From Propionibacteriaceae bacterium (lineage in GTDB: Bacteria > Actinomycetota > Actinomycetes > Propionibacteriales > Propionibacteriaceae): a DNA stretch of 64,000 nt. Below the pieces are notes generated by a model that did no database searches, was not told where the DNA came from, and saw only the letters and a list, made by a program, of their open reading frames with translations. The DNA is taken from the NCBI GenBank assembly GCA_031272505.1, contig JAISTQ010000051.1:1-64000 (forward strand), given 5' to 3'. A program made the position numbers and the translations under genes. Below are positions 24,401-54,906 of the stretch, piece after piece (position 1 is the first letter of the stretch; the number at the start of each line of letters is the position of its first letter).

Positions 24401-26479
24401 TATGCGCCAGTTGGATACGTCCATGCGTTGCGCGGTGAGCTTGTCGTCTCTCAACAGCCAGCGCAGGAACTCCTGATGGTCGCTCTCCGGGATCCACACC
24501 GCGCCGGGCCGCACCCCTATCTCACCGGGGAGGATGTCCTCGGGCTGAACCTGCCGCAACGCCTCCACATGCGCCTGCCATGTTCCCGGCTCGGCGGTCT
24601 CCGCCAAGATCGCATCTTCGAGTTTCTTGCGCACATCACCGGAAAGGTATTCGGCTTTGGTGACCCACTCGTCGGTTCTGGGCACCTGCCAGATCAGCTC
24701 GCCCAAATCCGCGACCGCCGTATCGACGGCCACACCCGCCAGTTCGGCGATCTGCGCCAAATCCACCTGACCGGTGCGGTCCAACACGACGTTCAGGGCA
24801 TCCTGGACGGACTCTACTTGGCTGATCTGCGCAGCTGGTTTGATCTGCCGTCCGAGCAGCATCACGCCGGGGGATGCCTGCTGGGTGGCCTCGTCGAACA
24901 CTTCCAACGCGCTCATCCGCCACCAGGCCGGGTCAGCGGCCATGAGCCGCAGCGCCGCCGGGGTACGCCTACCGGAGGCTGGCACCAACGTTTCCGCTTT
25001 CGCCAACACCTCGTCCTCGGGAAGATCCTGCTCGGCGGCCAATTCTTTGGCCAGTTCGGCGCGTTCGCGCTTATCTGCGGCGGTCACGAACGGCGTGTAG
25101 CGGTTCAGCGGCCCATAATCTTTGACGTACTGCTCCCAACGGCCCCTCAGATCGGCGCGGCGGGCTTTGATCGCCTCATCTGCGCTATCCGGGTCAGCCT
25201 CGACAGCCATCAACGCTGAGAGGGAGTCGCGGATTTGCAGCAGCCGGCCCAGCTCGGCTCCGGCCGACTTCGGTACCTTCAGCGGCACATATTCCCCATA
25301 TTCGACGATGCCGAAACTCGCATTCTTCAGCTTGCCGATATGTCCGTCTGGAACACCCGGCGGGGCGGCCTCCAGTTTGGGCGGCAACTTATCTTCGTCC
25401 CGGCGGGGAGAGAAAACCATCCGGTGCGCTTTCGCGTGCCGGCGGAGCATCACGGACGCCAAAGTGAGGCTCTCCGGCAGCGTGTTCAGGTCTGTGGCCT
25501 CCACACCAAGCCGCACCCCATACTGTGTCGAGACCGCTTTCATGGTGCCCAGCACCATGTTCGGATTCTCCAAGAAATACTTGTTCACCGCGAGTTGTTC
25601 CTCGCCGTGCGGCCCCTGAAGGGTCTCCCAGTTGGTTTGCAGCCATGCCGGATTCTGCTCGAACGGCTCACCGGGGACGCGCCGCCGGAACAGCAGCATG
25701 TCGATCATCACGTCGGTGCCCGCCGAACGGGCGAACGCCCGGTTCGGCAACCGGATCGCGCCCACCAGATCGGCAAGCTCGTGCATCTCCTCCCGCGCCG
25801 ATGCGTTCTCGGCGTCCATCGTGTAAGCGGAAGTGAGCATCACCGCCATGCCGCCAGGACGCACCAAAGCGAGCGACTTGATAAGGAAATGGTTGTGCAT
25901 CGACTGGCGCGTCGAGTTATACAACGGATCCACAAGCTGCACCTTAGAAAACGGCACGTTGCCGATAGCGGCGTCGAACAATCCCGGGCGGAACCTCGAA
26001 TCCGCGAACGACTCACACCGAATCCGCGCTTGCGGATACAGCGCCTGGGCGATAGCGGCGGTCGTCGGATCCAGTTCCACGCCGTACATGTTCGCGTTCG
26101 AAGGTGCCATGCCGATAAACGTGCCCGCGCCGCAGCCCGGCTCCAGCACGTTCCCGCTGTCAAACCCCAAATCCCCCAACAGCGTCCACATGTGCCGCAC
26201 CACCATCGGATCGGTGTAATGCGCGTTGATCGTGGTCAGCTTCGCCGCATCGTATTCCTCCCCGGACAGCAGGCCGCGCAGCCGCGCCCGCCGCTGCCCA
26301 TGCTCGTCGCGGGATTCGTCAAACACGTCCGCCAGACCCGACGCGCCCCACCCCGACCAGCGTGCCAAAACCTGCTTCTCTTCCAGTGTCGCCAGCCGGG
26401 GCTGACCGTCAATGCCCGGCTCTTGCCGCAAAGCCTGCAACGTTTCGATAGCGGCGACGTTCGCATCAAAACGCGCCAA
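21440..26479 (-). CDS. N6-adenine methyltransferase / SNF2-type helicase fusion (DarB-like)
   Basis: A protein of about 1680 residues combining an adenine methyltransferase (motif I NVLEPGCGAGTFIGM near 110; motif IV-like IGNVPFSKVQLVDPL) with a superfamily 2 helicase: YPHQRDAVARMLA, Walker A HQVGAGKTMEM (about 836), YLFVDELHSFKNL (about 994), MTGATATPIANS, and C-terminal lobe MGVGTNIQRRAIHLL, REGRILRQGN (about 1343). A charged coiled-coil tail follows. It resembles phage P1 DarB and the large plasmid-borne methyltransferase-helicases, which protect incoming DNA from type I restriction; that role is inferred. The frame stays open upstream to 26998, but the added residues overlap the acidic protein gene and look non-coding; I take TTG 26479 after CAGGAGGATTT, uncertain by some tens of bases. 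Confidence 0.85.
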   Translation of the reverse strand: MARFDANVAAIETLQALRQEPGIDGQPRLATLEEKQVLARWSGWGASGLADVFDESRDEHGQRRARLRGLLSGEEYDAAKLTTINAHYTDPMVVRHMWTLLGDLGFDSGNVLEPGCGAGTFIGMAPSNANMYGVELDPTTAAIAQALYPQARIRCESFADSRFRPGLFDAAIGNVPFSKVQLVDPLYNSTRQSMHNHFLIKSLALVRPGGMAVMLTSAYTMDAENASAREEMHELADLVGAIRLPNRAFARSAGTDVMIDMLLFRRRVPGEPFEQNPAWLQTNWETLQGPHGEEQLAVNKYFLENPNMVLGTMKAVSTQYGVRLGVEATDLNTLPESLTLASVMLRRHAKAHRMVFSPRRDEDKLPPKLEAAPPGVPDGHIGKLKNASFGIVEYGEYVPLKVPKSAGAELGRLLQIRDSLSALMAVEADPDSADEAIKARRADLRGRWEQYVKDYGPLNRYTPFVTAADKRERAELAKELAAEQDLPEDEVLAKAETLVPASGRRTPAALRLMAADPAWWRMSALEVFDEATQQASPGVMLLGRQIKPAAQISQVESVQDALNVVLDRTGQVDLAQIAELAGVAVDTAVADLGELIWQVPRTDEWVTKAEYLSGDVRKKLEDAILAETAEPGTWQAHVEALRQVQPEDILPGEIGVRPGAVWIPESDHQEFLRWLLRDDKLTAQRMDVSNWRIKPGRTITGDFTYTELWGTRRKAAHEIFRAMMEQRPIQVTDYWKDADGQEHEQLNEQETDAATEKAEKLDQAFKEWIWENPERTVRLVREYNRRFNSHVGRDYRTEGERLSLPGLSPMWQPYPHQRDAVARMLAEPSVGLFHQVGAGKTMEMCIGAVELKRLGMIQKPAFVVPNHMLNQFTREFLQFYPQANVIAASAETLSKAERTRFVARIAQGDYDAVIMTYGAFTKIPLQPKTVNRFIAEQVADLQAAIDREKGKEKGLSVKKQQAQMLARMEKIKGKLLTDRDPGVSFEESGIDYLFVDELHSFKNLTTFSQISDGQIEGSQRAMDLLSKVDYLRRMNGKRVMTGATATPIANSVSEMHVMLRYLTPETLRAAGVYQFDEWAATFAQVEKRPEFTATGDIKFKNRLAKFVNVPELQGLFRRVADVKRGSELGLKIPATVQLDGQPGVDRLVLARSEEQRVFFEEVIRKRIRDIEEKLVEPDQDNHLTVHGDGRRATLDMRLVDPRAQGGEKIDAAADIIHQIWAKTKDWEYSDPDTGQPYPGRGALQMVFCDQGVPNTDGRFSVYTELKQSLVDRGIPAEKIRFIQDAKTNTDKERLFEECRNGNVAVLIGSTTKMGVGTNIQRRAIHLLHLDPPWRPADVEQREGRILRQGNLNPEVHITTAIATDTYDTFMWQTISRKADFIGQLMNGGNLGREVENLDDETEKARMNTAVSTSNPLLMELIEAEQTLRRFTNLERDHDRQQKALEVRIANAEHEIAKAEENLPLLREALAASQSTKGDAFHIKLRTAGEWDPARGRVPVTIRTTSRSDAAQWLEQHMQAPWELIHANPFVKLGGLAIELQQEREYRRRGRSETNYKLALRGVPGVERNIDLKGNHPTSGMGMVTRMENMIATGISAAIDENTLSLSQAQAELEGSRRLLGKPFVHQAELEDARETYLNVKTEFNRIAEAQENLPPGTPSIRPPELTEETSPHIGFGPAI

Positions 26480-26523
26480 CGGGCCAGATGGCGCTAAATC
26501 CTCCTGGCTTGCCGGTCGGAAAG

Positions 26524-26913
26524 CTACGCCAAGGTGAGCAGCCTCGCCACCATCGGCCGCCTTGGATCTGCCGCGTAGTGCTCCAGGTTGCCCGGATCGT
26601 CCGGGTCGTCCTTCGCCATCTCCTCCCGCCAGGTGTTCGCCTGCTCCACCACCTCCGCCAGCAGCTCTTCGGGCTTCACCTTCCACTTCTTCGCTATCGC
26701 CTCCAGCAGCACCTCCGGCGGGGCCGTCTGCTCCAAGCCCAGATCCATCACCGTGAACAACAGATTGTCCGCCAGATGGTTCGAATAGTGATAGAGGCTC
26801 ATCGCCCCCATGTACTCGCCCAGCGCATCCAGATACGGATTGTCCTCCTCCTCTTCTTCTTCCGGATACGGATAATCCTCGTCCTCGTCCACTATCTCCA
26901 AGTGCTCGCCCAT
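26524..26913 (-). CDS. Acidic hypothetical protein (129 residues)
   Basis: Starts at ATG 26913 after GAGGAGGAACAGC. The N-terminus is extremely acidic (IVDEDEDYPYPEEEEEEDN), followed by helices (YHYSNHLADNLLFTVMDLGL, then PPEVLLEAIAKKWKVKPEEL). Such acidic proteins next to methyltransferase-helicase genes could be DNA mimics or chaperones, but no family is recognised. It overlaps another open frame, that of the large fusion protein, which argues that the fusion starts downstream of it. It is the gene immediately before the fusion in the P6 operon. Confidence 0.7.
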   Translation of the reverse strand: MGEHLEIVDEDEDYPYPEEEEEEDNPYLDALGEYMGAMSLYHYSNHLADNLLFTVMDLGLEQTAPPEVLLEAIAKKWKVKPEELLAEVVEQANTWREEMAKDDPDDPGNLEHYAADPRRPMVARLLTLA

Positions 26914-26985
26914 GCTGTTCCTCCTCCGCTTCGGCCAGCCAATCCAACAACGACGGCTGGAACACAGTTCTGTTCTGCCTCGCCA

Positions 26986-27084
26986 TTAGCCTATCCAAAT
27001 CTCAAGCCGAAAAAACCGCCCGGCGTGTCGCCCTGCCACCGGACAGCCCACGATCAGCAAAGACTCGAAAGGATTTCTCTTCAT
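26986..27084 (-). CDS. Possible leaderless leader frame of the P6 operon (32 residues)
   Basis: An ATG lies five bases after the TTTTCT hexamer of P6. The 32-codon frame ends in TAA that overlaps a following ATG (TAATG at 26986), the start of a frame beginning MARQNRTVFQPSLLDW that later runs into the acidic protein gene. The peptide includes AGRHAGRFF over the conserved GCGACACGCC. Evidence is positional. Confidence 0.4.
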   Translation of the reverse strand: MKRNPFESLLIVGCPVAGRHAGRFFRLEIWIG

Positions 27085-31230: not shown

Positions 31231-32733
31231 CTATGCTGCGGCCTCTAGCGCGTCTTGCGTCCAAGTCAACTGCTCTTCGACCGGATGCAGGATCGTCTTG
31301 ACTTTGAAGTAGCGTTCCCCGGCGATCCAAAGGGCGCGGCCCTTCTCCTGGCGGCACCAGCCGGTCACCAGTTGCTGCGCCATCGGGTTGATGCCGAGCA
31401 GCTCGCCAAGCTGGTTCGCGACCTCTTGGTCCTGGCCGAGCAGGATCTTCGTATCCGCCAAATGGAACATGTCTTTGGCGATCTGCACCGCCTGCGAGCC
31501 CGCATCGCCCACACTCAAAAAGTCTGATGGTTTGTGCGCTATCGCCATCTGAATGTCGCCGTCGCGGCGCGAAAGCCGCAAATCCGCGTCGAAGCTCTTC
31601 ACCGCGTCAATACCCAACCGGAACTGCCGCCAACACTCGTCGCGTACCACCACCCGCATGTCGCCCGGCTCGGACAGTTCCCGCATCGCCCGCGCCCACG
31701 AGTTCAGGCACAGCAGCGCCATGCCGGTCGCCTCGTCACCCAAACCCTCCAGGCGGGAAAGCGACAGGGAAGCTATCGGGGCCATCCAATCCAAATCGAT
31801 GGTCGTCGGCCCGTCGAACAGGCCGGCCAGCGCACCTTGGAACATTTCCGCCAAAGCGTCCCGCAACGCCCTAGTGTCATCCCAGAAATGCTGGCTGGAC
31901 GAGTATCGGCACTCCTCGATCATCTGCTGCGGCGGGCTGTTCAGGCACTGCCACAGCTCGGGGATGGTCGTCACCCGCAAGCTGGAGGCCCCTTGGGCGA
32001 AGCCGGTCACCTGCTTCAACGCCGAATCGACCACCTTCGCTTCGGTTGGCCCGAACGGCACCCCTTGAGAGCCGACCATTCCCCTGATCAAAGTCAGCCA
32101 GCGGGCGAACACGATGTCGCAGCGGCGCTTCTGCTCCGCCACACTCAACTGTTCCCAGCCTTGGCCGAGCGGCCCGAAATCCAGCGGGTTGATCCGGTTC
32201 GCCAAGCCTTGCCCGATTGCGATCGGTTCCACCTGGAAGAACCGGCACAGCTTCTCGTACTCGTCTTTCGGATCGCCGACCACCAGGCAGCGGTAGCCGA
32301 ACGCGGCCATCCGGATGATGAACGCCTTCACGGTGGCGGACTTGCCCATGCCTGGCTTGCCCAACACCATCACGTTCGGGTTGGAAACCGGCATGTCGTC
32401 GTCCATCACCCAGCCGTTCGGATCGCAATAGAACGCCCCGCCGGAGAAATAGTCCACGCCCATCTGCGCGCCGTGCGGCTTCAACCCTGGAGCGGAAATG
32501 AACGGCCAAAAGATCGCCGCCTGGTCCGACGTCATCTGGTACACCTCCGGCGGGACCTTTCCCGGCTGCCAGCCGCAATACGGGCGCAGCACGTTCTTCT
32601 GCGGGGCGAACAGGCGCGGCTCCTTCGTTTCCGGCGGCGGCGGCGTCACCTTCGGCAGCTCATGGCCGAAATCCGCCAACAGCCGATCCACACTCCGGCC
32701 TTGGGTGTCCGCCCGTCTCTGCTTGCCCATCAC
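31231..32733 (-). CDS. Type IV secretion ATPase, VirB4-like
   Basis: A 500-residue ATPase with Walker A VMVLGKPGMGKSATVKAF (core 125-132), the following strand RCLVVGDPKDEYEKL, and a C-terminal region VVRDECWRQF...VKSFDADLRLSRRDGDIQMA typical of VirB4/TraC proteins in actinobacteria (conserved acidic residue before the arginine-rich segment, then IAHKPSDF). It would energise assembly of the channel and transfer. No membrane span. It lies 9 bases before the fusion nuclease gene and 12 after the SCO6880-family gene. Confidence 0.9.
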   Translation of the reverse strand: MMGKQRRADTQGRSVDRLLADFGHELPKVTPPPPETKEPRLFAPQKNVLRPYCGWQPGKVPPEVYQMTSDQAAIFWPFISAPGLKPHGAQMGVDYFSGGAFYCDPNGWVMDDDMPVSNPNVMVLGKPGMGKSATVKAFIIRMAAFGYRCLVVGDPKDEYEKLCRFFQVEPIAIGQGLANRINPLDFGPLGQGWEQLSVAEQKRRCDIVFARWLTLIRGMVGSQGVPFGPTEAKVVDSALKQVTGFAQGASSLRVTTIPELWQCLNSPPQQMIEECRYSSSQHFWDDTRALRDALAEMFQGALAGLFDGPTTIDLDWMAPIASLSLSRLEGLGDEATGMALLCLNSWARAMRELSEPGDMRVVVRDECWRQFRLGIDAVKSFDADLRLSRRDGDIQMAIAHKPSDFLSVGDAGSQAVQIAKDMFHLADTKILLGQDQEVANQLGELLGINPMAQQLVTGWCRQEKGRALWIAGERYFKVKTILHPVEEQLTWTQDALEAAA

Positions 32734-32745
32734 ACGCCCTCTTCC

Positions 32746-34254
32746 CTAGTTCAGTTTCTTGGTGTTCACCAGCGACAGTCCCAACGGGACCACCGACGCG
32801 AAAAACGCATGATCTTGAGATAAATCCACCGGCAACGGGGCGAACCCCGAGTTGCGGATCGACGCGTGCAGCCGCTGGGAGAACTCGGCGATGCTCATCG
32901 TCCTTGGTACCGTCACCGTCGCCAAAGCATAGGGGCGCACCATCGCGTTGCCCGAATCGAGCTTCTCATCCAAGCGGCGGGTCCGGCCCACCTGCTTTCG
33001 TTCCGAAGCGCGCATCTTCCGGCCCATCTTCTCGTTGATCGCCTCCGCCATATCGGCCGTCGCTTCTTTTTTGCGGGTGAGTTTCTGCGCTTTGTCGAAA
33101 CTCATGATCGGATAGCCGACCAGCAGGCTGCGCCGCTCTCCGGCCTCCTGCGGCATCAACACCGGGGCGAGCGCGCCCATCACCGCGCCCTTACCGGGAA
33201 GCCGGATCACATCCGAGGACGACCACCAGGCGTCATGCTCATAATGGCGGGCAGCGGAATGCGCGCCCGACGGGCCCGCCATCGGCCAAGGCACATCCGC
33301 GTTCACCTTCGGATCTTTGCTTTTGGCCACCCCGGCGGCCACCAGTTGGGCACGATCCCCCGGCGCGAACCCGGTGCGTACCGCGACAGCCAACTCCGGG
33401 GAAGTCAGCCAGCGGACAGTGTCCATCTGCAGGCCGGAGCGCAGCTTCGTCTCCATCTCCGCCAGCAGCATCACCATCGCCGACATGCGCCCCGCCATGC
33501 CCTTCCCGAAATGCTTCGCGTTCTTCTTCAACGCCGCCTCCGAAACCGTCACCGTGCAAAACGCCTCCGTCTGCACCGACGCCTGCGACACGATCTGCGC
33601 CAAACCCTCCGTCACATGCCGGGCCTGCGCCGGGGCCGCCGCCGAAAGATGCTCCAACAGATACTGGTGGCGTTCCTCGCCGTCATCCGGCACCGACCGC
33701 ACAATAAACAGAATCTCCTCCACCATCTCCGTCCGCGCCGCCGCGTTCAACAAATCCCGCAAACCATCCGCCAACAAAGCCCGCTCGGCGACATCGGCCA
33801 GTTTGATCCCCGGGAACGTGATCGCCGCTGTCGCCGCCCACGTCAAATTCGCATGGTTCTGGATGATGCCCACCCGGCGCTGCTGCGGGCCTTCCGGCGG
33901 ACCATCATGGACCTTCACCTGCTTCAACAAGCCCGGAAGATCCGCCTCCTCAATGTTCTCGCCCTCCATCGCCTTCGAACGGAACTCAGTCAGCTTCGAA
34001 GCCGACCCGGCCGAATGCGCAACAAACGTGGCCAGCCAGTTGATCGAGCTGCGGCCCCGGATCGGCACCGCGATCACCAGCGCGGCGGCCGCGAAAAGGA
34101 CCAACGTCCAACCGACCGCGCCCCAATCCGAACGCGAGACCGCCAACAGGCACGGCATCAACGCCACAAACAACCCAGCCAGCTTCGGGCCAGTCAACCC
34201 GAAAAACAGGCCGCTCTTATCTTTTTGGAACTCGCCATAAACCGCGACACTCAT
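32746..34254 (-). CDS. SCO6880-family type IV secretion protein
   Basis: A 502-residue protein with two N-terminal membrane spans (LTGPKLAGLFVALMPCLLAV; VGWTLVLFAAAALVIAVPIR) in a PrgI/VirB3-like arrangement, then a long soluble region. Landmarks are RRVGIIQNHANLTWAATAAI, DGEERHQYLLEHLSAAAPAQ and HDAWWSSSDVIRLPGK, as in SCO6880-type proteins that precede VirB4 in actinobacterial conjugation clusters and fuse VirB3-like and VirB4 N-terminal-like parts. Role in the channel is inferred from family context. Tight spacing on both sides. Confidence 0.85.
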   Translation of the reverse strand: MSVAVYGEFQKDKSGLFFGLTGPKLAGLFVALMPCLLAVSRSDWGAVGWTLVLFAAAALVIAVPIRGRSSINWLATFVAHSAGSASKLTEFRSKAMEGENIEEADLPGLLKQVKVHDGPPEGPQQRRVGIIQNHANLTWAATAAITFPGIKLADVAERALLADGLRDLLNAAARTEMVEEILFIVRSVPDDGEERHQYLLEHLSAAAPAQARHVTEGLAQIVSQASVQTEAFCTVTVSEAALKKNAKHFGKGMAGRMSAMVMLLAEMETKLRSGLQMDTVRWLTSPELAVAVRTGFAPGDRAQLVAAGVAKSKDPKVNADVPWPMAGPSGAHSAARHYEHDAWWSSSDVIRLPGKGAVMGALAPVLMPQEAGERRSLLVGYPIMSFDKAQKLTRKKEATADMAEAINEKMGRKMRASERKQVGRTRRLDEKLDSGNAMVRPYALATVTVPRTMSIAEFSQRLHASIRNSGFAPLPVDLSQDHAFFASVVPLGLSLVNTKKLN

Positions 34255-39567: not shown

Positions 39568-40464
39568 CTAGCCCAGTGCCGCCAGCAGGTTCGTGATCAT
39601 TGTCGCAATCACACCGCCCGAAGCGCCAGACGCCACCCTGCCTAGAAAGCCGCCCGTCTTCGACACCAGCGTACGCAGCCGCCCCTTCTCCGGCGTCGGC
39701 GCATCCGCCTCCTGCGTGATCTCTTCGAGAATCTCCGAGACTTCCTGTTGATCGGTGTCTGTCAACCCCAACTCCGGCAGTTGCGCCGAGACGAGCTCGA
39801 CGAAAAACCGCAAGTTCGCCAACGTGTCACTCGAAACCGTCTGCATAGCGTTCGGACTATTGACAGCAACGTTGCCCCCAATATTCGTGACGTTCACACC
39901 GCCAGCCACCTGCACAGGAGGCTTCCCGCCAGCCTCCACCCATGCCTGTCCTTCAGGATTCAATCCAGCTCTTTGAGGGATTCCGATCCAGTCTGTTATC
40001 GCGTTCGCAGCAAGATAGTGAGAGTCCAGCAGCCACTTCGCAGCTTCACCTGCATCTTCCTCAGTGAACGGAGCTCCGTAAAACGTGGGATCGCTTTCTA
40101 GCCAGTCGGAAAGGAGATGAAGATCAGATGGTGACTGCTGCTGGTACATCCAACGCGCCAACGCCATCCTCGCCGTTTTCCGTCTCTCGACAACATTCTC
40201 ACGCTGCTTCTGCACCTGCCTCAACAGCTTCAGCCTCTGATGAGTTATCCCGATATCCCAAGGCCAATTGCAGTTAGGCCTGTGCAGAAGCCCTGCTCTT
40301 TCGAGTGCTTGAACATCACCGCTATGACCCTCATGGAGCCCCAGATCAGTGATCGGCACTAGAATGTGAGGTTGTTTGTCAGTCGCTTCGGCGATCTTCT
40401 CCAGGAACCACAACCGCCTGGCGGGGATGCCCGACATGCCTGGGGACAGTTCTATCGCGCTCAT
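39568..40464 (-). CDS. Possible membrane-acting defence protein (298 residues)
   Basis: N-terminal half is helical and looks like a winged-helix or sensor region (RRLWFLEKIAEATDKQPHIL; ALERAGLLHRPNCNWPWDIG). A beta-type motif GGVNVTNIGGNVAVNSPNAM lies near 190, and the C-terminus (about 265-298) is GGFLGRVASGASGGVIATMI followed by TNLLAALG, a Gly/Ala-rich hydrophobic segment of the kind that inserts in membranes. Proteins with this NxGGN repeat and a hydrophobic end occur in bacterial defence islands as putative abortive-infection effectors; I assign that role only by resemblance and by its place beside a restriction-like system. Less GC-rich than the transfer genes, suggesting separate acquisition. 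ATG 40464. Confidence 0.55.
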   Translation of the reverse strand: MSAIELSPGMSGIPARRLWFLEKIAEATDKQPHILVPITDLGLHEGHSGDVQALERAGLLHRPNCNWPWDIGITHQRLKLLRQVQKQRENVVERRKTARMALARWMYQQQSPSDLHLLSDWLESDPTFYGAPFTEEDAGEAAKWLLDSHYLAANAITDWIGIPQRAGLNPEGQAWVEAGGKPPVQVAGGVNVTNIGGNVAVNSPNAMQTVSSDTLANLRFFVELVSAQLPELGLTDTDQQEVSEILEEITQEADAPTPEKGRLRTLVSKTGGFLGRVASGASGGVIATMITNLLAALG

Positions 40465-40539: not shown

Positions 40540-41574
40540 CTAGGTCATTGGGGCGACATGCTCTTCGATGAAGGCGATCTCGCTGTCGTCGAGTTTGTAC
40601 TTGGCGTAGAGCTGTTGGTCGATTTCGGGGATTGATTTCGTCCAGTCGATGTCCGATTCGCTCGTGAAGTCCTGGAGGGGGACGTACTTCCACACCTTGG
40701 CAGGATTGTGCTGAGTGATCTTCAAAACGCCAAGTAAGGTGCGCGCGAACTTACTCTTCACGTACTTGAGGCAGGCCGCAGCATCTGATTCGTCCTTGAA
40801 GCACCCGATGGTAATGAAAGTCTGAGTCACCGCGACGTTAGGCTCGGCGATGACAGGGTCTCCGATCCCGCCGAGGCTGGTGGAACCATTGGAAGCCGGA
40901 ACGGCAACCTTATACGCACCGAAGCTCTCGGGGCCAGTGATGTAGTCGCTGCGAATCCAGCGGTAGACCCGCCTATTTTTGATGAGGCCGAGCACCTGAA
41001 CGTAGTCCTGTCCGTCAGATGGTTTCGTCTCGTAATAGAGGAATGAAAACTGCTCAAATGCGTTCGTATTCACGAGTGCCGCATTTCCCTCGGGTCGGAG
41101 TGCCAGCGCATCAGGATGATCCCGGTACAGCTCGTCGGTGTAGCGATAAGACCGCGAGCTTGTTATCCTCGTCTTTTCCAGCGAATTACGGCTAGAGGCG
41201 AGAACCTTGTGCAGGATGTCGTTGAGTTCCGGGTATTTCGTGAAAGTTCCAATAGGTTCGCCGGTAGCGTCGGAATCTCGGTAGGTGACGGCGATGCCGC
41301 CCATGATGTCGGTGCCGGGGAACAGGTCGTTGCTGTTTGGCACGTAGTGCGATACTGAGATGCGCGGATCCGCGAGCATCTTCTCGTTCCACGCTTTGGG
41401 TGTGAATCCTGCGTTGAAGAGGAAACGGGCTGGGGTGATGAGCACCACTTTCTTGCCGACCTCGTAGGCCGCGTCCATGAAGAGGTGGTAGACGGGTGTG
41501 TCTCGGGTGCCGGCCCCTTGTGCTTCTTCCTGGTAGGGCGGGTTGCCGATAACGACGTCGAATTGTTTGCTCAT
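40540..41574 (-). CDS. Adenine methyltransferase NPPY-domain protein with specificity region
   Basis: A 344-residue protein starting just before motif IV: FDVVIGNPPYQEEAQ (NPPY at 11-14). Further Eco57I-type features are VVLITPARFLFNAG, ADPRISVSHYVPNSNDLFPG and a target-recognition-like C-terminus (YVQVLGLIKNRRVYRW; WKYVPLQDF). There is no AdoMet motif I; that part seems to be at the end of the preceding 1094-residue protein, whose stop is one base before this ATG (TGACATG, changed frame). The two polypeptides together would make one Eco57I-like methylase. Last gene of the three-gene system. Confidence 0.85.
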   Translation of the reverse strand: MSKQFDVVIGNPPYQEEAQGAGTRDTPVYHLFMDAAYEVGKKVVLITPARFLFNAGFTPKAWNEKMLADPRISVSHYVPNSNDLFPGTDIMGGIAVTYRDSDATGEPIGTFTKYPELNDILHKVLASSRNSLEKTRITSSRSYRYTDELYRDHPDALALRPEGNAALVNTNAFEQFSFLYYETKPSDGQDYVQVLGLIKNRRVYRWIRSDYITGPESFGAYKVAVPASNGSTSLGGIGDPVIAEPNVAVTQTFITIGCFKDESDAAACLKYVKSKFARTLLGVLKITQHNPAKVWKYVPLQDFTSESDIDWTKSIPEIDQQLYAKYKLDDSEIAFIEEHVAPMT

Positions 41575-41575
41575 G

Positions 41576-44500
41576 TCAGTGTCCTTCCGTCAACATGTCG
41601 TCGATTGTCTGCTGGCGTTCTTCTGGGGTCATTTGGGCGAGGTTTCCGACTTGGAAGTGCCCGGAGTTCTCGATCCAGGCTTTTCGCTCCGGGACGCCAC
41701 CAGATACAGCTTCGAGGGTGATTCGGTGCAGTAGTTCGTTGTGGCTCATTTCGAAGATCTGGGTGGTGAAGATGTGTTTCAGCCGCTCCTCGGGGTCAGA
41801 GATGACATCCTCTAGCCCTTTGTCCAGGCGGCGTACGAGTTCCATCAGGAACAGCCCGGCGGTGGAGAAAAGGTCAGCGAAGGTTTTCGTCGGATCGGTG
41901 AAGATGCCGGGGTTTTCGGCTTCGAGGGTATCGACCATCATCTTGACCACTGCTTGTGGGGTGAAGACGAGCGAGGTTTTCTGTTGCGGGATGTAGGCGA
42001 AAATATCCTCGGTCTGTTTGTCATCGAAGTAGTCGGCGAGGGCTTCCTTCTTGTCGAGGAACTCTTGGATGGACTGGTCGAACACCGCTTCGTCGAACAG
42101 GCCGGGAATCCTCGTGGTAGATCCGTCTTCTTCTTTGACTTCTTGGCCGTCGCGGAGGATACGGAAATCGTCCTCGGTGATCCCGGTGATCTCCTCGAAT
42201 ACGTCATCGGGGGTGTAGTCGTCGAAGTTCGACAGCTTGATACCCCGATCCCCGTATGCCATGAGGAACATGGGGATTGTGCGGGCGAACCCGCGTAGAT
42301 GCGAGCGGGCGTCTTCCATCGTCTTGTCTGCCCGTTTCTGTTCCTTCTTGGTTTCCTCGCGGGTGACGATCTCTGGAACGATGTTCTCGATAGTCTTTTC
42401 GACGATTTCTAAGACTTTGGCATTGAGTTCTTCTTCTTTTTCGGCCTGCCTGGCTTCGATTTCCGCTGCCTCAGCCTCGGTAGCCGCTGCGGCGCGTTCA
42501 TCTTCGAGACGCTTCTTGGCGATGTTGTACTCGGTGTGGGCACGTTCGATCTCGATCTTCACGGTTTGTTCCGTGCGCTTTTCGTCACGTTCGACCTGCC
42601 CGGCAGTGAGTCCGTATTCGTTCTTCAGTTGTTCACGCTTAGCGTGGGTTTGCTCGGTGATGGCCTTAGCAATCTGAATGGCGTTCTGGCGGGCTGGCGC
42701 GTTCGCGTCGGCGATGGGGATGTCTTCGACCTGCCACACCGGCTTGCCCAGTTCGGCAACCTTCAGATTGATGACTGTTTCGGTGTCCAACCTGACTGTC
42801 CCGTCCGGATCGACCGACACTGGCGGGTCGGGGATCTCGATGCGTTGGCTGGTCTTGAGTTTGCCTTGCTTAGCCGCTGGCAGCTTGTCGAGGATGTCTT
42901 TGACGTGCTCGGAATAGCGGAAGATACCGGCGACGTTGGCGAACAGGAGGTTGGACAGGAATCCACGTCGGACAACTTCGCGGGCTTTGAAGACTTGCGG
43001 GAAGGTGATCACCTGTGTGGCGTCCAGTGCGATCATGCGCCCTTCGGAGTCCTCGCCGATGACGGGAAAAAAGTTCAACAGTCTGCGGATGTTGTCTCGT
43101 CGCACTTCCGGGTCGCCGGTCGGGTTTGGGTTGAGGTTGTTGGCGAAAGCGTCGAATATGGTGAGTGTCCGTTCCGGCGCGAAGTCGAAAATGTAGGCGT
43201 TCTCTTTTTGGAACACTTTCCCGCCCCGTTCGAACGTGCAGGGGTTCTGCGCTCGGAAAGCTGCTTGCATGTAGAGGGCGGGCGAGGTGAGGTTGGAGAG
43301 CATGATGACGGCTGTCCATTCCGGGACAGTGACGCCAGTGGTGAGCTGGCCCACGGACAGCGTGATGGTCTTCCCGCCTTCGCGCTCGGCTTTGTCGATT
43401 GCGTCGCGAACGGCGTCCAGCGACTTCTTGGAGACCGCCATGTCAGCGTCGTCAGAGCGGCCGTCTCCGGCGGCCAGCACTATGGTGTAGTCCTTGAACA
43501 CGTCGTGTTTCTTCAGGAGTTTTTCGAGTGCTTTCGCCGAAGCGACGCGGTTTAGGAGCCAGAACGAGTGCCGGATCTCGTCGCGTAGCTCCGGAGTGGA
43601 GAACGGGTACTTCTCGTTCGTTGTCAGGCAATCAAGGAACTTGATCACTTCGGCTTCATGCTCAAAAAAGCCGTTCTCTTTCGTGCTGAAGAACTCGTTG
43701 AGGTCGAAAGCGTAGTCGATGTTGGCCTCGTCTTCGCTGAGGGCGACACCTTCGGCGAGCCGGTCGGTGATCATGCGGGACACCTGGTAGGTGAGCATGT
43801 TGAGCGTGGGCAGCGCCTCGTAAGGGTTCTCTTCTGCCGAGTTGTCCCAGTTTTGGCGGGCGGTTCGTTCCTCTTCGTAGGTCCAGTTGAAGATCTGGTC
43901 TTCGTCGAACTTTCCTGACGCCAACGCTTTGAATGGTGTGCCCGAGAGGTGGAGGGCCCAGTTGCGTTTGATGTGGTCGAAGGCGACATCAGTCTTGGTC
44001 GTGTCGATTCCCTCGTGCGCCTCGTCAATGACGAGCAGATCCCAGTCAAAATCCGCAATGTGCTTGAGCTTCGGTAGATTCCCGCCGAAGTACTGTGAGC
44101 CTTTCAGATCTTGCAGGGAGACAAACTCGATAATGCGCAGGTCGCTGTCCCCTTGGTCGATCACGAGGCGACGCCACTGGTCCCTGGACATTGGACTGCG
44201 GTCGGCAAGGGATGGCGACTCTGAGACGAACTTGTAAGTGGTTTGGTGCCCGATGAACCGGACGAAATCGTCAAACCACTGGTTGGCGATGGCGGGCCGG
44301 TTCGTGACAATCAGCGCCCTTTCGACGTCCAACTGGCGCATGAGATCATAGGTGGTGAGTGTCTTGCCGAATCGGGGCTTTGCGTTCCACAGGACTTCTG
44401 CACGCCCGGCACCGAACGCGCTTAGTGCTTGTTCGACCGCCCGCTGCTGTTCAGGACGCAAAGTGTAGTCGTCTTCCCCTTCCGTCTGCACATCGGAAAA

Positions 44501-44860
44501 GTCTTGCGCCGCAAAGGCAAAGAAGTACTCTTTGGATGTCTTTTCCGCCCCTTTGAAACAGTGCCATTCCGTACGTTTCGGCTTGAGTTCACGCTCCACA
44601 CCCTGTTGGTGTAGGTAGAGATGAAACTCCTTGTCCGTGAATCGCCCGCCAGCCTCAGTCATGAATTGCGCCTTGTACGACCACTTCTTGTGCTGCCTCA
44701 CGGAGAGTTGTGACGCCTGCTGCGCGATGCGTTTATCGGCGCTTTCCTGCTCGGTGTACCCGATCTTCTCCCAACCTTCGTACTTCGGGATGTCTGGAGT
44801 CTCCCATGAGTAGACAAGAGGGTTTATCTCACGGTAGGTTTTGATGTTCGGGCTAGGCAT
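41576..44860 (-). CDS. GIY-YIG-like nuclease + SF2 helicase + methyltransferase-like restriction protein
   Basis: A 1094-residue protein. Residues about 15-60 (VYSWETPDI...GWEKIGYTEQESADKRIAQQ) fit a GIY-YIG/T5orf172 nuclease. A restriction-type helicase follows: Walker A NAKPRFGKTLT (159-169), LLVIDEAHEG (about 270), LHLSGTPFKAL, TITLSVGQLTTGVTVPEW and MQAAFRAQNP. A long charged coiled coil (about 740-860, EDERAAAATEAEAAEIEA) precedes a terminal half-methylase with LVFTPQAVVKMMVDTL and ADLFSTAGLFLMELVRR as a degenerate motif I. It overlaps the upstream methylase-like gene by 8 bases. By composition it should restrict DNA using ATP-driven translocation. GC content is visibly lower than in the transfer genes. 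Confidence 0.85.
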   Translation of the reverse strand: MPSPNIKTYREINPLVYSWETPDIPKYEGWEKIGYTEQESADKRIAQQASQLSVRQHKKWSYKAQFMTEAGGRFTDKEFHLYLHQQGVERELKPKRTEWHCFKGAEKTSKEYFFAFAAQDFSDVQTEGEDDYTLRPEQQRAVEQALSAFGAGRAEVLWNAKPRFGKTLTTYDLMRQLDVERALIVTNRPAIANQWFDDFVRFIGHQTTYKFVSESPSLADRSPMSRDQWRRLVIDQGDSDLRIIEFVSLQDLKGSQYFGGNLPKLKHIADFDWDLLVIDEAHEGIDTTKTDVAFDHIKRNWALHLSGTPFKALASGKFDEDQIFNWTYEEERTARQNWDNSAEENPYEALPTLNMLTYQVSRMITDRLAEGVALSEDEANIDYAFDLNEFFSTKENGFFEHEAEVIKFLDCLTTNEKYPFSTPELRDEIRHSFWLLNRVASAKALEKLLKKHDVFKDYTIVLAAGDGRSDDADMAVSKKSLDAVRDAIDKAEREGGKTITLSVGQLTTGVTVPEWTAVIMLSNLTSPALYMQAAFRAQNPCTFERGGKVFQKENAYIFDFAPERTLTIFDAFANNLNPNPTGDPEVRRDNIRRLLNFFPVIGEDSEGRMIALDATQVITFPQVFKAREVVRRGFLSNLLFANVAGIFRYSEHVKDILDKLPAAKQGKLKTSQRIEIPDPPVSVDPDGTVRLDTETVINLKVAELGKPVWQVEDIPIADANAPARQNAIQIAKAITEQTHAKREQLKNEYGLTAGQVERDEKRTEQTVKIEIERAHTEYNIAKKRLEDERAAAATEAEAAEIEARQAEKEEELNAKVLEIVEKTIENIVPEIVTREETKKEQKRADKTMEDARSHLRGFARTIPMFLMAYGDRGIKLSNFDDYTPDDVFEEITGITEDDFRILRDGQEVKEEDGSTTRIPGLFDEAVFDQSIQEFLDKKEALADYFDDKQTEDIFAYIPQQKTSLVFTPQAVVKMMVDTLEAENPGIFTDPTKTFADLFSTAGLFLMELVRRLDKGLEDVISDPEERLKHIFTTQIFEMSHNELLHRITLEAVSGGVPERKAWIENSGHFQVGNLAQMTPEERQQTIDDMLTEGH

Positions 44861-45560
44861 CGTTCCTCACTTCCTTGTGAACGTGCTCTATGTGGCAAGG
44901 CCGGTAGGTGGCGTACTGGGTGAAATCGAAAGCCCCAGAGCCTGCCTCGCGGAGCGACACCAATGTGAATGGTTCGCGCTGCACCATGCCGGGAATGTTC
45001 AGCATCCGATGCCACCAAGAAAATTGGAGAAGCTGCCCGGATCCATCTTGGCCGGTGAGGGTATTCCCTTGAAGGACATTCTGTTTGATCAGGTACTTCG
45101 CGGCGCGATACAAGTTGGTGCGGTAACCGCAGTTGATCCCATTGCGCTTATGGAAGGAAAAGAACTCTTCCTCCAGCGACTCCTGGGCGGCTTGGTGGTT
45201 GTCTTCAAGCAGCTCGACCGCATAGATCGAGGCGAGTGCGAACAGCGACTCGGTTTGCCAGAACTCAGGCTGGTAGCGCCTCTCAATGGCCCGGAGCTTG
45301 CGTCGGAGAATCGCCACAAGGAAGTTCCCGTCACCTGCGGCTGGCTCGAAGAAGGTCTTGTCCACGAATCCGGGCCCGGTCTCCAGTTCTGGCCGAACAA
45401 GGTCCAGCATCTGGTTGACCATGTGGTCGGGGGTGAACACCTCGCCGTACACCTTCACCCGGCGGCGAGACTTCACCAGTTGCTCCCTGCCATCGCCACA
45501 CGCCGCAGCGGCACCAGCCTCACCATGTGGCAGGTGAGCGTTGGTGGAATCTGTGACCAT
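44853..45560 (-). CDS. N6-adenine methyltransferase-like protein, motif I only (235 residues)
   Basis: Contains the N-terminal signature of type I/IIG methylases VKVYGEVFTPDHMVNQML (36-53) and a clear AdoMet motif I TFFEPAAGDGNFLVAIL (69-85), then IYAVELLEDNHQAAQ (motif II region with the acidic residue) and NVLQGNTLTGQ (motif III region), but stops without NPPY. It overlaps the helicase gene by 8 bases and begins the three-gene operon. It may complement the NPPY half-protein two genes downstream, or act as a sensor. Start ATG 45560 has only a weak ribosome site (GTGAGG). Confidence 0.8.
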   Translation of the reverse strand: MVTDSTNAHLPHGEAGAAAACGDGREQLVKSRRRVKVYGEVFTPDHMVNQMLDLVRPELETGPGFVDKTFFEPAAGDGNFLVAILRRKLRAIERRYQPEFWQTESLFALASIYAVELLEDNHQAAQESLEEEFFSFHKRNGINCGYRTNLYRAAKYLIKQNVLQGNTLTGQDGSGQLLQFSWWHRMLNIPGMVQREPFTLVSLREAGSGAFDFTQYATYRPCHIEHVHKEVRNDA

Positions 45561-52370: not shown

Positions 52371-53248
52371 TTCCGTAACCTCGCCTGCTCGCCCAACACC
52401 CTCGGCGCGTCAGGCATCGCCGCGATCCGGCGCACCAGATACACGAACAAGCCGAACAACCCCAGATAGAACAGCAGCAGCGCCTGCCCGAACGGGCTGC
52501 TGTATTCGAATATCATGCCGGACAGCACCGTGATGCCGACCCCGGCGACGCTGATGGCGACGATCATCCGCGCCTCGGTGCGGGCGCTTTCCCGTTCGGC
52601 CTCGATCGCGAGCCGGTTCCGGACATCCTGCGCCACCAGCACCGAGATCTGCTTCAACGTGGCCGACAGGCCCGAGCCTTGCACCCTGGACGATACGATC
52701 AAAGCTGCCGCCACCTCGTCGCCGGTATAGTCGCGCATCTCCTCGGCGAACGCCCGGAAAGCGACCTCCGGGGTGATGTTCGACCTGGACAGGAAACCCA
52801 CCAGGTGCGTCACCTCAGTTTTGATCGCCGGCGGGACGCTCCGCTGGGAGGCCGCGACAGCTTGCGGCAAAGACTGGCCGGCCATCAGCACCGAAGAAAG
52901 GCTCCGGGTCCATTCCGCCATCGCGTTCATCTTCGCGATCCGGACATCCTCATCGGAGCGCATCATGATCGCAGGCAGGAACACCACTATCGCCGGCAGC
53001 ACAATCGGCGCGATCATCCAGCCGAACACCATCGCGACCAACAAGCCCACCAGGAAAGAACCGACGATCAACAGCCGCCGTTGTGGGCTTTGGGCAACCC
53101 ACCAGCGGGCCAGCCGCGAATCGTGGCGGCCGCGCGGCGGTTTCGCCGGGCGGCGCATCATGCCCAACGCCAGCAGGAACAGGCCGCCGAAAACGGCCGC
53201 CCCCGCCACCAGGGCGAAAATAGTTCCCAAAGCGTACGCGTTCACCAT
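52367..53248 (-). CDS. tadB: TadB, pilus assembly inner-membrane protein
   Basis: A 293-residue GspF-family protein: spans at YALGTIFALVAGAAVFGGLF, LLIVGSFLVGLLVAMVFGWM and near the end (MIFEYSSPFGQALLLFYLGL). The conserved domain reads AEWTRSLSSVLMAGQSLPQA and SGLSATLKQISVLVAQDVRN. ATG 53248 lies inside the tadA stop region (GGCATGGTGA), an overlap of 7 bases. Longer upstream starts are in tadA coding sequence. Confidence 0.85.
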   Translation of the reverse strand: MVNAYALGTIFALVAGAAVFGGLFLLALGMMRRPAKPPRGRHDSRLARWWVAQSPQRRLLIVGSFLVGLLVAMVFGWMIAPIVLPAIVVFLPAIMMRSDEDVRIAKMNAMAEWTRSLSSVLMAGQSLPQAVAASQRSVPPAIKTEVTHLVGFLSRSNITPEVAFRAFAEEMRDYTGDEVAAALIVSSRVQGSGLSATLKQISVLVAQDVRNRLAIEAERESARTEARMIVAISVAGVGITVLSGMIFEYSSPFGQALLLFYLGLFGLFVYLVRRIAAMPDAPRVLGEQARLRK

Positions 53249-54906
53249 GCCCTCCCCGGTTTCTCCGCCAGGTCGGCCTGGAACTGCTCGGGACGCCACC
53301 CGGCGGCCTTGCAGGCGCGGATAAGCTGCTCCGACGGCGGCGCGCACGGGACGGCCGGGACGGTCGCCTGCTCAGACACGAAAATCGGCTCGGTGGTGAT
53401 CTGCCCCTCCACCAAAGAAACCCCGGCGATCTCATCCACCCAGCGGGCCTTCCGCTGGGTGCCGTCCGGCAACATGACCGTCTGCCCACGGAAATACACC
53501 ACCAAATCCAGCACGCTTGCGAGCTTCTCCGTCGCCAGCTCTTTCGTCACCGACGGCCCATGCTCCATCGCGCACGTCACCAGCTTCTGCGTACACGCCC
53601 GCGCGCTCCGCGCATGGGTGGTGGACAGCGACCCGAAACCGGACTCCATAACCTTGATCATCGACCACACCTCCGGGCCGCGCACCTCCCCGACAATCTG
53701 CCGATCCAGACGGTACCTGAACGAGTTGATGATCTGCTCGGCCGTCGTCTCAGAGCCGACACCGCCCTCGCCGCCCTGCCGGGACTCCCACGCGTACACC
53801 AGCGGATGGCGGCGCTGCCCGTCCGCATCCAGCAGCTCATCCAAAAACAGCTCATAGTCTGACTCGAACGTGCCCAACACCTCACCCGGCGGAATCTCGT
53901 TGATCAACGCCCGCATGAACGTCGTCTTGCCCACCGCCTGCTGGCCACACACCACAATCGACAAACCAGCCCGGACCGCCGCCGCCAAAAAATCCGCCGC
54001 CGTCTGTGTCACATTCCCCCACGCCACCAAATCCGCCAAACTCACATCCCGCACCCGATGCCTTCGGATACAAACCGCGACCCTCGACGTCGAAACCGTC
54101 GCCGCCAGCCGATACCCGCCCGGCAAAGTCATATCCAGTGACGGATTCGAATGCGAGAACTGGCGCGGATTCCTCGCCCGCTGCGCAATATCCCTAATGA
54201 ACCCCTCCAGCTCCGCATCCGACGCCGCAATCGGCTCAGCCTGCACCATCGTGCCATCCGAAAGTTCCATCCACACCACATCGCAGCCCTCCAGAAGAAT
54301 GTTCTCAACCCGCTCATCCTCCATCAGATACTGCAGCCGGCCCAGCCGGAACAACGTGTTGAACACCGCCCGGTGCAGCTGCTCCGCCTCCGCCAGCGAA
54401 TACGGCTCGCCCGTCGCCGACACCATCATCGACTGCCGATCCGCGACCACCCGGCCGATCACCTCGGTGCCGAACGCCTCAAACTCATCCGAATCGAACT
54501 GCTCACCCTCATGGGTGCGCAGCCAATCCGCGACCGGCACCGAACACTCATTCGCTAAAGACGCCACCAAATCCCAATCCAACATCTCCGCCCGGCGCTG
54601 CGGCCGCACCCGCAAAGCCGCCACCGCCGGCCTTGGAAGATCCGCCACCGAAGGCACCACCGCCGACACCGGCTCCAACTGGGCGGCCACCTGCTCCGCA
54701 ATCGACGGCAGCGGCCCAACAACAACCTCCGGGTCAGGATCGGCTGGGATCAGCCACGGGGACGGACTGTCATCCGTGCCGTCATCAACAAAGAAAAACC
54801 GCGCCTGGCCCTTCGAAGGCGGCGGAACAGCATCAGCCTTCCGCTGCAGCAACGGCAACGAGCCAATATCGAACTCGTCCCCAAAAGAGAGAGTCTCCTC
54901 GCTCAA
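53242..54906 (-). CDS. tadA: TadA/CpaF pilus assembly ATPase
   Basis: A 554-residue secretion ATPase. After a ~110-residue variable N-terminus come the typical blocks: VENILLEGCDVVWMEL, FSHSNPSLDMTLPGGYRLAA, VAVCIRRHRVRDVSLADLVA, Walker A VVCGQQAVGKTTFMRALINE (about 322-341), Walker B region RLDRQIVGEVRGPEVWSMIK and SGFGSLSTTHARSARACTQK with the conserved His. It powers pilus extension. Starts at ATG 54906, overlapping the TadZ-like stop. Confidence 0.93.
   Translation of the reverse strand: MSEETLSFGDEFDIGSLPLLQRKADAVPPPSKGQARFFFVDDGTDDSPSPWLIPADPDPEVVVGPLPSIAEQVAAQLEPVSAVVPSVADLPRPAVAALRVRPQRRAEMLDWDLVASLANECSVPVADWLRTHEGEQFDSDEFEAFGTEVIGRVVADRQSMMVSATGEPYSLAEAEQLHRAVFNTLFRLGRLQYLMEDERVENILLEGCDVVWMELSDGTMVQAEPIAASDAELEGFIRDIAQRARNPRQFSHSNPSLDMTLPGGYRLAATVSTSRVAVCIRRHRVRDVSLADLVAWGNVTQTAADFLAAAVRAGLSIVVCGQQAVGKTTFMRALINEIPPGEVLGTFESDYELFLDELLDADGQRRHPLVYAWESRQGGEGGVGSETTAEQIINSFRYRLDRQIVGEVRGPEVWSMIKVMESGFGSLSTTHARSARACTQKLVTCAMEHGPSVTKELATEKLASVLDLVVYFRGQTVMLPDGTQRKARWVDEIAGVSLVEGQITTEPIFVSEQATVPAVPCAPPSEQLIRACKAAGWRPEQFQADLAEKPGRAW

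What the first reader, a model, noticed from the sequence alone, without database searches (positions are those of the whole stretch)
40540..45560. Three-gene restriction-like system with the methylase parts divided among three proteins
A motif-I-only protein (235 residues), a GIY-YIG-like nuclease-helicase with a degenerate motif I (1094) and an NPPY-only protein (344) are linked by an 8-base overlap and a 1-base gap. No single protein is a complete methylase, so activity must need assembly. This may be an undescribed restriction-modification or phage-exclusion architecture.
Basis: partly seen in the sequence, partly recalled or inferred. Interest (0 to 1): 0.75.

Follow-up and report, generated by a model that had tools for sequence, protein, structure and literature searches.

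The report
Split-methylase restriction system, rearranged DrdVI type
These three genes are a rearranged member of a little-studied restriction-modification family (DrdVI type) in which the DNA-methylating enzyme is divided between proteins, and relatives that fuse the pieces keep a hidden start site for making the catalytic piece on its own.

Summary
Three minus-strand ORFs (235, 1094 and 344 aa) overlap by 8 bases and are then separated by 1 base. P1 holds methylase motifs X-I-II-III without NPPY. P2 is a GIY-YIG (T5orf172-type) nuclease plus SF2 motor ending in a degenerate motif X-I-II half. P3 starts at NPPY and carries the variable recognition region. It is not a local mutation: 28 of 29 P1-bearing genomes of the order carry the neighbouring modules, and the split recurs in Bacilli, Proteobacteria, Deinococcus and two gut phages. 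In 67-69 aligned copies the SAM determinants are intact only in P1 and NPPY is present only in P3, so a composite methylase is strongly implied. The family is not undescribed. It is homologous to DrdVI (pDrdVI), whose M1+M2 were cloned and expressed in E. coli and are assigned GCAGCC (m6A); MaeIV is a second such 'split methylase'. The window differs because the pseudo-SAM half is fused to the motor-nuclease and M2 begins exactly at motif IV. Apparently new: in all 39 non-redundant genes fusing the two halves, a start codon sits two codons before motif IV, with a ribosome-binding site preserved by synonymous codon choice, suggesting one recognition half shared between modification and restriction complexes.

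The parts
44853..45560 (-). P1 (M1-like): SAM-binding half of a gamma-class N6-adenine methylase, motifs X-I-II-III, no NPPY
   Evidence: ORF; family motif counts; AF2 pLDDT 83; best structural matches MmeI and CamA, Z 12.7, aligned to CamA residues 10-160, just before its NPPY at 165-168 (PMC8187626)
45318..45347 (-). P1 motif I EPAAGDGNFL (E72-L81)
   Evidence: E, P, G and G invariant in 67 of 67 P1 sequences
45198..45227 (-). P1 motif II IYAVELLEDN (I112-N121), ribose-binding acid E116
   Evidence: E or D in 67 of 67
41576..44860 (-). P2: GIY-YIG nuclease, SF2 motor, long helical region, pseudo-SAM half
   Evidence: ORF; Pfam ResIII; same architecture in L002-L024
44486..44860 (-). GIY-YIG (T5orf172-type) domain, P2 residues 1-125; Y17, K32-x-G34, R44, E98
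   Evidence: Invariant residues; T5orf172 matched in 6 of 8 members
42941..44473 (-). SF2 helicase/translocase core, P2 residues 130-640 (AKPRFGKT, DEAH, SGTP)
   Evidence: ResIII 5.5e-15; invariant motifs
41696..42085 (-). MTdeg: pseudo-SAM half, P2 residues 926-1055
   Evidence: hhalign to the P1 family: probability 97.8, E 9.5e-13 over 90 columns
41846..41881 (-). Degenerate motif I FADLFSTAGLFL
   Evidence: First Gly of GxG replaced by K (36) or T (32) in 68 of 68 homologues
41729..41761 (-). Degenerate motif II QIFEMSHNELL
   Evidence: Acidic residue replaced by S/A/G/T in 68 of 68
41582..41588 (-). Shine-Dalgarno-like GGAAGGA, 7 nt before the P3 ATG
   Evidence: Sequence
40540..41574 (-). 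P3 (M2-like): catalytic half (motif IV onward) plus target-recognition region
   Evidence: Eco57I 2.4e-16; PADLOC MTase_II 3.8e-30
41533..41562 (-). Motif IV FDVVIGNPPY, beginning at residue 5 of P3
   Evidence: GNPPY in 69 of 69 readable copies
40825..41280 (-). Hypervariable P3 residues 99-250, probable target-recognition domain
   Evidence: Mean pairwise identity 43% against 60-78% in all other segments of the trio

Best explanation
A DrdVI-like ATP-dependent restriction-modification system with a split N6-adenine methylase. P1 supplies the SAM-binding half and P3 supplies the catalytic NPPY half and the target recognition. Together they would methylate adenine in a short, probably asymmetric site (composite enzyme strongly inferred; M1+M2 activity was reported elsewhere for DrdVI and MaeIV). 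P2 is the motor and GIY-YIG nuclease. Its C-terminal pseudo-SAM half, a degenerate paralogue of P1, probably docks on P3 in P1's place, so that the same recognition half directs restriction without methylating (inferred). Unmodified DNA would then be translocated and cut (inferred). Relatives that fuse the pseudo-half to the catalytic half appear to make free catalytic half from an internal start (sequence evidence strong, translation not shown).
For: Modules co-occur: 27 of 28 P2-positive genomes of the order also have P1, and 28 of 29 P1 genomes have the neighbouring modules. Complementary losses: P1 keeps GxG and the motif II acid (67/67) and lacks NPPY; MTdeg lost both (68/68); P3 has NPPY (69/69). 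P1 and MTdeg are homologous halves. P1 model equals a gamma methylase up to just before motif IV. pDrdVI carries P1, MTdeg-P3 and GIY-helicase; M1-2.DrdVI were expressed in E. coli and assigned m6A GCAGCC (PMC6430315); M1-M2.MaeIV give m6A GCACY (PMC10113651). Internal start: 39/39 fused genes have ATG/GTG/TTG two codons before motif IV; SD in 30/39 against 5.3% of other in-frame Met codons and a synonymous null of 11.4 +/- 2.3; Gly(-5) is GGA in 16/16 against 15% usage. P3 99-250 is hypervariable.
Against: The P2 model is poor (pLDDT 62), so the fold of the pseudo-half and its docking on P3 are not shown. No complex was modelled. The window's own GIY-YIG domain has no Pfam hit. Nothing here shows activity of the window system. 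Homologues are not independent, so the P values overstate. The DrdVI and MaeIV papers do not report M1 or M2 tested alone in what I could read.
Confidence: 0.78

Rival explanations
1. P2+P3 form a self-sufficient methylase whose altered motif I still binds SAM; P1 is an accessory or regulatory protein.
For: In Bacilli the degenerate half and the NPPY half are one chain, and the second Gly and the motif X 'FTP' are kept in MTdeg.
Against: Both the first Gly of GxG and the ribose-binding acid are lost in all 68 copies while P1 keeps both in all 67; P1 is almost always present; published clones used M1 together with M2 (PMC6430315, PMC10113651).
Confidence: 0.1
2. The internal start codon in fused genes is only a relic of a former gene boundary, or a structurally preferred Met, and is not used.
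For: Split genes exist whose P3 starts at nearly the same place, so fusion could leave an ATG behind.
Against: Kept in 39 of 39 fused genes across phyla while neighbouring positions vary; the three non-Met cases are GTG, GTG, TTG; the SD is kept by rare synonymous codon choice.
Confidence: 0.25
3. The locus is a local frameshift or decay product of a single-chain type ISP/IIG enzyme.
For: The modular order nuclease-motor-methylase-TRD resembles type ISP enzymes; P1 matches LlaBIII structurally.
Against: The same split occurs in about 30 actinobacterial loci with intact frames; P1 is an extra, intact paralogous half.
Confidence: 0.03
4. A phage-exclusion system in which methylation is absent and P1 senses SAM or DNA.
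For: Located on a conjugative element and also on two phage genomes.
Against: Relatives DrdVI and MaeIV are assigned m6A motifs from cloned genes (PMC6430315, PMC10113651); P3 has intact NPPY and a variable TRD.
Confidence: 0.06

Closest known systems
DrdVI (M1.DrdVI, M2.DrdVI, DrdVI; Deinococcus wulumuqiensis NEB 479, plasmid pDrdVI)
   Same: Same three modules: small SAM-half M1, NPPY/TRD-bearing M2, and a GIY-YIG nuclease fused to a translocase (PMC4996451). M1-2 cloned and expressed in E. coli; GCAGCC, m6A (PMC6430315).
   Different: In DrdVI the pseudo-SAM half is part of M2 (539 aa) and the nuclease-motor is a separate 851-aa protein. In the window the pseudo-SAM half is at the end of the nuclease-motor and M2 starts at motif IV; gene order is M1-R-M2.
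MaeIV (M1-M2.MaeIV, Methanococcus aeolicus)
   Same: Described as a split methylase/RM similar to DrdVI; m6A GCACY on one strand (PMC10113651).
   Different: Its sequence was not compared here; archaeal.
Type ISP enzymes (LlaGI, LlaBIII)
   Same: Order nuclease, SF2 motor, gamma methylase, TRD; P1 model matches their methylase domain (Z 7.5).
   Different: Type ISP is one chain with an Mrr-type nuclease and an intact methylase (own knowledge); here GIY-YIG, three chains, duplicated SAM half.
PADLOC REase_MTase_IIG model PDLC03626 (1359 aa) and MTase_II model PDLC03375 (348 aa)
   Same: P2 and P3 match the fused model, P3 matches the 348-aa model; DrdVI subunits match them as well.
   Different: No model covers P1 as such; it only gets weak partial hits to complete methylases.
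MTA1-MTA9 and METTL3-METTL14
   Same: Two methylase-like chains of which one lacks SAM-binding residues (PMC9174199).
   Different: There both chains are whole folds; here P1 and P3 each hold only half of the fold.

Membership tests
DrdVI-like split-methylase R-M | M1: small protein with SAM motifs and no NPPY | tested here: met
DrdVI-like split-methylase R-M | M2: NPPY motif plus target-recognition region | tested here: met
   P3 GNPPY; variable 99-250; same PADLOC models as M2.DrdVI
DrdVI-like split-methylase R-M | GIY-YIG nuclease fused to a translocase | tested here: met
   ResIII; family T5orf172 hits and conserved Tyr/KxG/Arg/Glu, though no Pfam hit for the window copy itself
DrdVI-like split-methylase R-M | Pseudo-SAM half located in the M2 protein, as in DrdVI | tested here: not met
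   In the window it is at the C-terminus of P2. This is an arrangement, not a stated criterion of the published family, so it is filed as a variant
DrdVI-like split-methylase R-M | M1+M2 give site-specific m6A | not testable with these tools
   Reported for DrdVI and MaeIV only (PMC6430315, PMC10113651)
Type ISP R-M | Single polypeptide with nuclease, motor, complete methylase and TRD | tested here: not met
   Three ORFs; degenerate SAM half in P2
Type IIG R-M (REBASE label of DrdVI) | Endonuclease and complete methylase in one chain | tested here: not met
BREX | PglX methylase with PglZ, BrxC and other subunits | not tested
   No BREX component among the PADLOC hits of the trio and its next gene; the rest of the window was not scanned

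The most novel reading that the evidence does not exclude
One catalytic/recognition half (P3) is shared between two alternative SAM-type halves: with intact P1 it makes the modification enzyme, with the pseudo-half of the motor-nuclease it makes a SAM-blind recognition module for restriction. Where the pseudo-half and catalytic half are fused, one gene makes both the long and the short form through a conserved internal start. Modification and restriction would thereby always keep the same specificity.
Probability: 0.5. Interest if true: 0.72.

Novelty: new variant of a known kind. Interest (0 to 1): 0.55.

Why it matters
The DrdVI family is described in only a few lines in the papers I could read, and defence libraries have no model for its SAM-binding subunit, so many copies are annotated as unrelated 'N-6 DNA methylase' or 'hypothetical' fragments. 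The complementary motif losses define how to recognise it. The internal start gives a directly testable account of how one recognition module can serve both a methylase and a nuclease. It would also be a naturally split adenine methylase, useful as a two-part tool.

Tried and rejected
Local frameshift or decay: rejected by the many intact homologous loci. AbiR as the known relative: no PADLOC AbiR hit, and the papers found only mention it. P2 structure prediction was too poor to use (pLDDT 62). Direct PDB sequence searches with P1, P2 and P3 found nothing; profile searches gave only weak methylase hits for P1. Viral-contig scan with P1 found none, with P2 one contig. The gene after the trio (39568-40464) is not conserved with it. 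E. coli genomes hold no DNA-level relative of M2.DrdVI. P1 'fused' to P2 in L023 looks like a frameshifted P1 tail rather than a true fusion (judged by eye from the alignment). Single-chain methylases with a P1-like half exist but are generic gamma enzymes, so they show only that NPPY normally follows where P1 ends.

Full report
OBSERVATION. The three ORFs are present as described: P1 45560-44853, P2 44860-41576 and P3 41574-40540, all on the minus strand, with an 8-base overlap and then a 1-base gap. P3 has its own ribosome-binding-like GGAAGGA seven bases before its ATG. P1 has motifs X (GEVFTP), I (EPAAGDG), II (IYAVELLEDN) and III (GNTL) but stops where NPPY would come. P2 has a GIY-YIG-like N-terminus, an SF2 motor (ResIII 5.5e-15) and a C-terminal X-I-II segment with motif I DLFSTAG. 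P3 begins MSKQFDVVIGNPPY (Eco57I 2.4e-16).

RECURRENCE. Twenty-two genome loci and two Arthrobacter plasmids carry relatives of P2 (66-77% identity except one at 44%), nearly all with all three ORFs in the same order. In the window's order P1 was found at E below 1e-14 in 29 genomes; 28 have the other modules next to it. Of 28 P2-positive genomes 27 have P1. Three arrangements exist: (A) P1 / GIY-motor-pseudohalf / P3 (window); (B) P1 / pseudohalf-P3 / GIY-motor (Proteobacteria, Deinococcus, many Actinobacteria, two gut phages); (C) P1 with one fused GIY-motor-pseudohalf-P3 chain of about 1450 aa (Bacilli). In some systems P1 is replaced by another NPPY-less 'subunit M' with motif I [AT]CGE[AG]P[YF] (L048, L049, L135, L041 beside L033).

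COMPLEMENTARY LOSSES. Over 67 P1, 68 pseudo-half and 71 P3 sequences (69 of them covering motif IV): P1 motif I E-P-x-x-G-x-G is invariant and motif II keeps E or D in every copy, and no P1 has NPPY. In the pseudo-half the first Gly of GxG is K (36) or T (32) in every copy and the motif II acid is S, A, G or T in every copy. P3 has GNPPY in all 69 readable copies. More distant fused proteins also have SKTG or SKSG. Acids of motifs I and II contact SAM in CamA (PMC8187626). P1 and the pseudo-half are homologous to each other (hhalign probability 97.8, E 9.5e-13), so the system contains two versions of the SAM-type half, one intact and one altered but conserved.

STRUCTURE. The P1 model is good from about residue 40 on (overall pLDDT 83, pTM 0.79). 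Its best solved relatives are MmeI and CamA (Z 12.7), aligned to CamA residues 10-160, while CamA's NPPY is at 165-168 (PMC8187626). P1 is thus a gamma-class methylase cut off just before motif IV. The P2 model is not usable. The nuclease assignment rests on T5orf172 matches in 6 of 8 diverse members and on invariant Tyr, KxG, Arg and Glu; it is not a Pfam match of the window copy itself. P3 residues 99-250 vary far more (43% mean identity) than any other part of the trio (60-78%), as expected of a target-recognition domain.

KNOWN FAMILY. Plasmid pDrdVI of Deinococcus wulumuqiensis NEB 479 carries arrangement B. Its M1-2.DrdVI genes were cloned and expressed in E. coli ER2796 and assigned GCAGCC, m6A, filed as type IIG (PMC6430315). 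[quoted passage not shown] The window system is therefore a variant of a known kind. It differs in that the pseudo-half is attached to the nuclease-motor and M2 begins at motif IV.

INTERNAL START. In genes that fuse the pseudo-half to the catalytic half, the codon two positions before the Phe of FDVxxGNPPY is a start codon in 39 of 39 non-redundant cases (36 ATG, 2 GTG, 1 TTG), while nearby positions vary. An AGGA/GGAG/GAGG lies 3-11 nt upstream in 30 of 39, against 5.3% of 569 other in-frame Met codons in the same genes; synonymous resampling gives 11.4 +/- 2.3 and never more than 21 in 2000 trials. In 16 of 16 genes with Gly at -5 the codon is GGA, against 15% usage elsewhere in those genes (binomial 6e-14, overstated by shared ancestry). 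DrdVI itself shows it: TTT GGA GAG AAC ATG CAG TTT GAC. Separate P3 genes most often start four residues before motif IV. The catalytic half thus seems to be made as its own polypeptide throughout the family. I found no description of this in the papers I could search.

MECHANISM. Shown: module conservation, complementary motif losses, homology of the two SAM-type halves, coding signature of an internal start. Shown by others for relatives: m6A assigned to cloned M1+M2. Inferred: P1+P3 is the modification enzyme; the pseudo-half of P2 binds the same P3 half to give a recognition module for restriction; the motor translocates and the GIY-YIG domain cuts. The single-strand m6A of MaeIV suggests asymmetric sites and a two-site cleavage requirement as in type III and ISP enzymes (inference from known enzymology).

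CONTEXT. The trio lies on a conjugative element with a TrwC relaxase, SCO6880, VirB4-like and TadA/VirB11 genes. Related systems are common on plasmids.

Noticed in passing
window 7736-13276, 31231-34254, 53242-54906: Conjugative element genes: TrwC relaxase with primase/Toprim, VirB4-like ATPase, SCO6880 family protein, TadA/VirB11-type ATPase.
   Followed up: partly
window 21440-26998 (-): 1852-aa ORF with a weak methyltransferase match (DUF6094) and SNF2/ResIII helicase domains, possibly another restriction or anti-restriction protein of the same element.
   Followed up: no
window 3331-4968 (-): C5-cytosine DNA methylase of 545 aa, no partner nuclease looked for.
   Followed up: no
window 159-1994 (-): 611-aa protein with a weak Cas12f1-like/TnpB TNB-domain match.
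   Followed up: no
window 39568-40464 (-): 298-aa gene 75 bases after P3 on the same strand with a weak PADLOC PDC-M14B match in its C-terminal third; not conserved beside other trios.
   Followed up: partly
L144 and L145: Complete trio of arrangement B on two human-gut phage genomes (PV036449, MT835565), so phages themselves carry the system.
   Followed up: partly
L048, L049, L135, L041 (upstream of L033): An alternative NPPY-less partner ('restriction endonuclease subunit M', motif I [AT]CGE[AG]P[YF]) replaces P1 beside proteins with the same degenerate motif I; in E. faecium (L135) a DUF262 gene follows.
   Followed up: partly
L084 6953-7903 (-) and L127 6241-8664 (-): Rare incomplete cases: a P1 without neighbours and with an aberrant tail (G172), and a GIY-motor gene without P1 (G216), probably decaying copies.
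   Followed up: partly
L046, L054, L140, L141, L142, L147: Bacillar fused proteins have about 160 extra N-terminal residues before the GIY-YIG-like domain (GIY match starts near residue 149-181), of unknown function.
   Followed up: no
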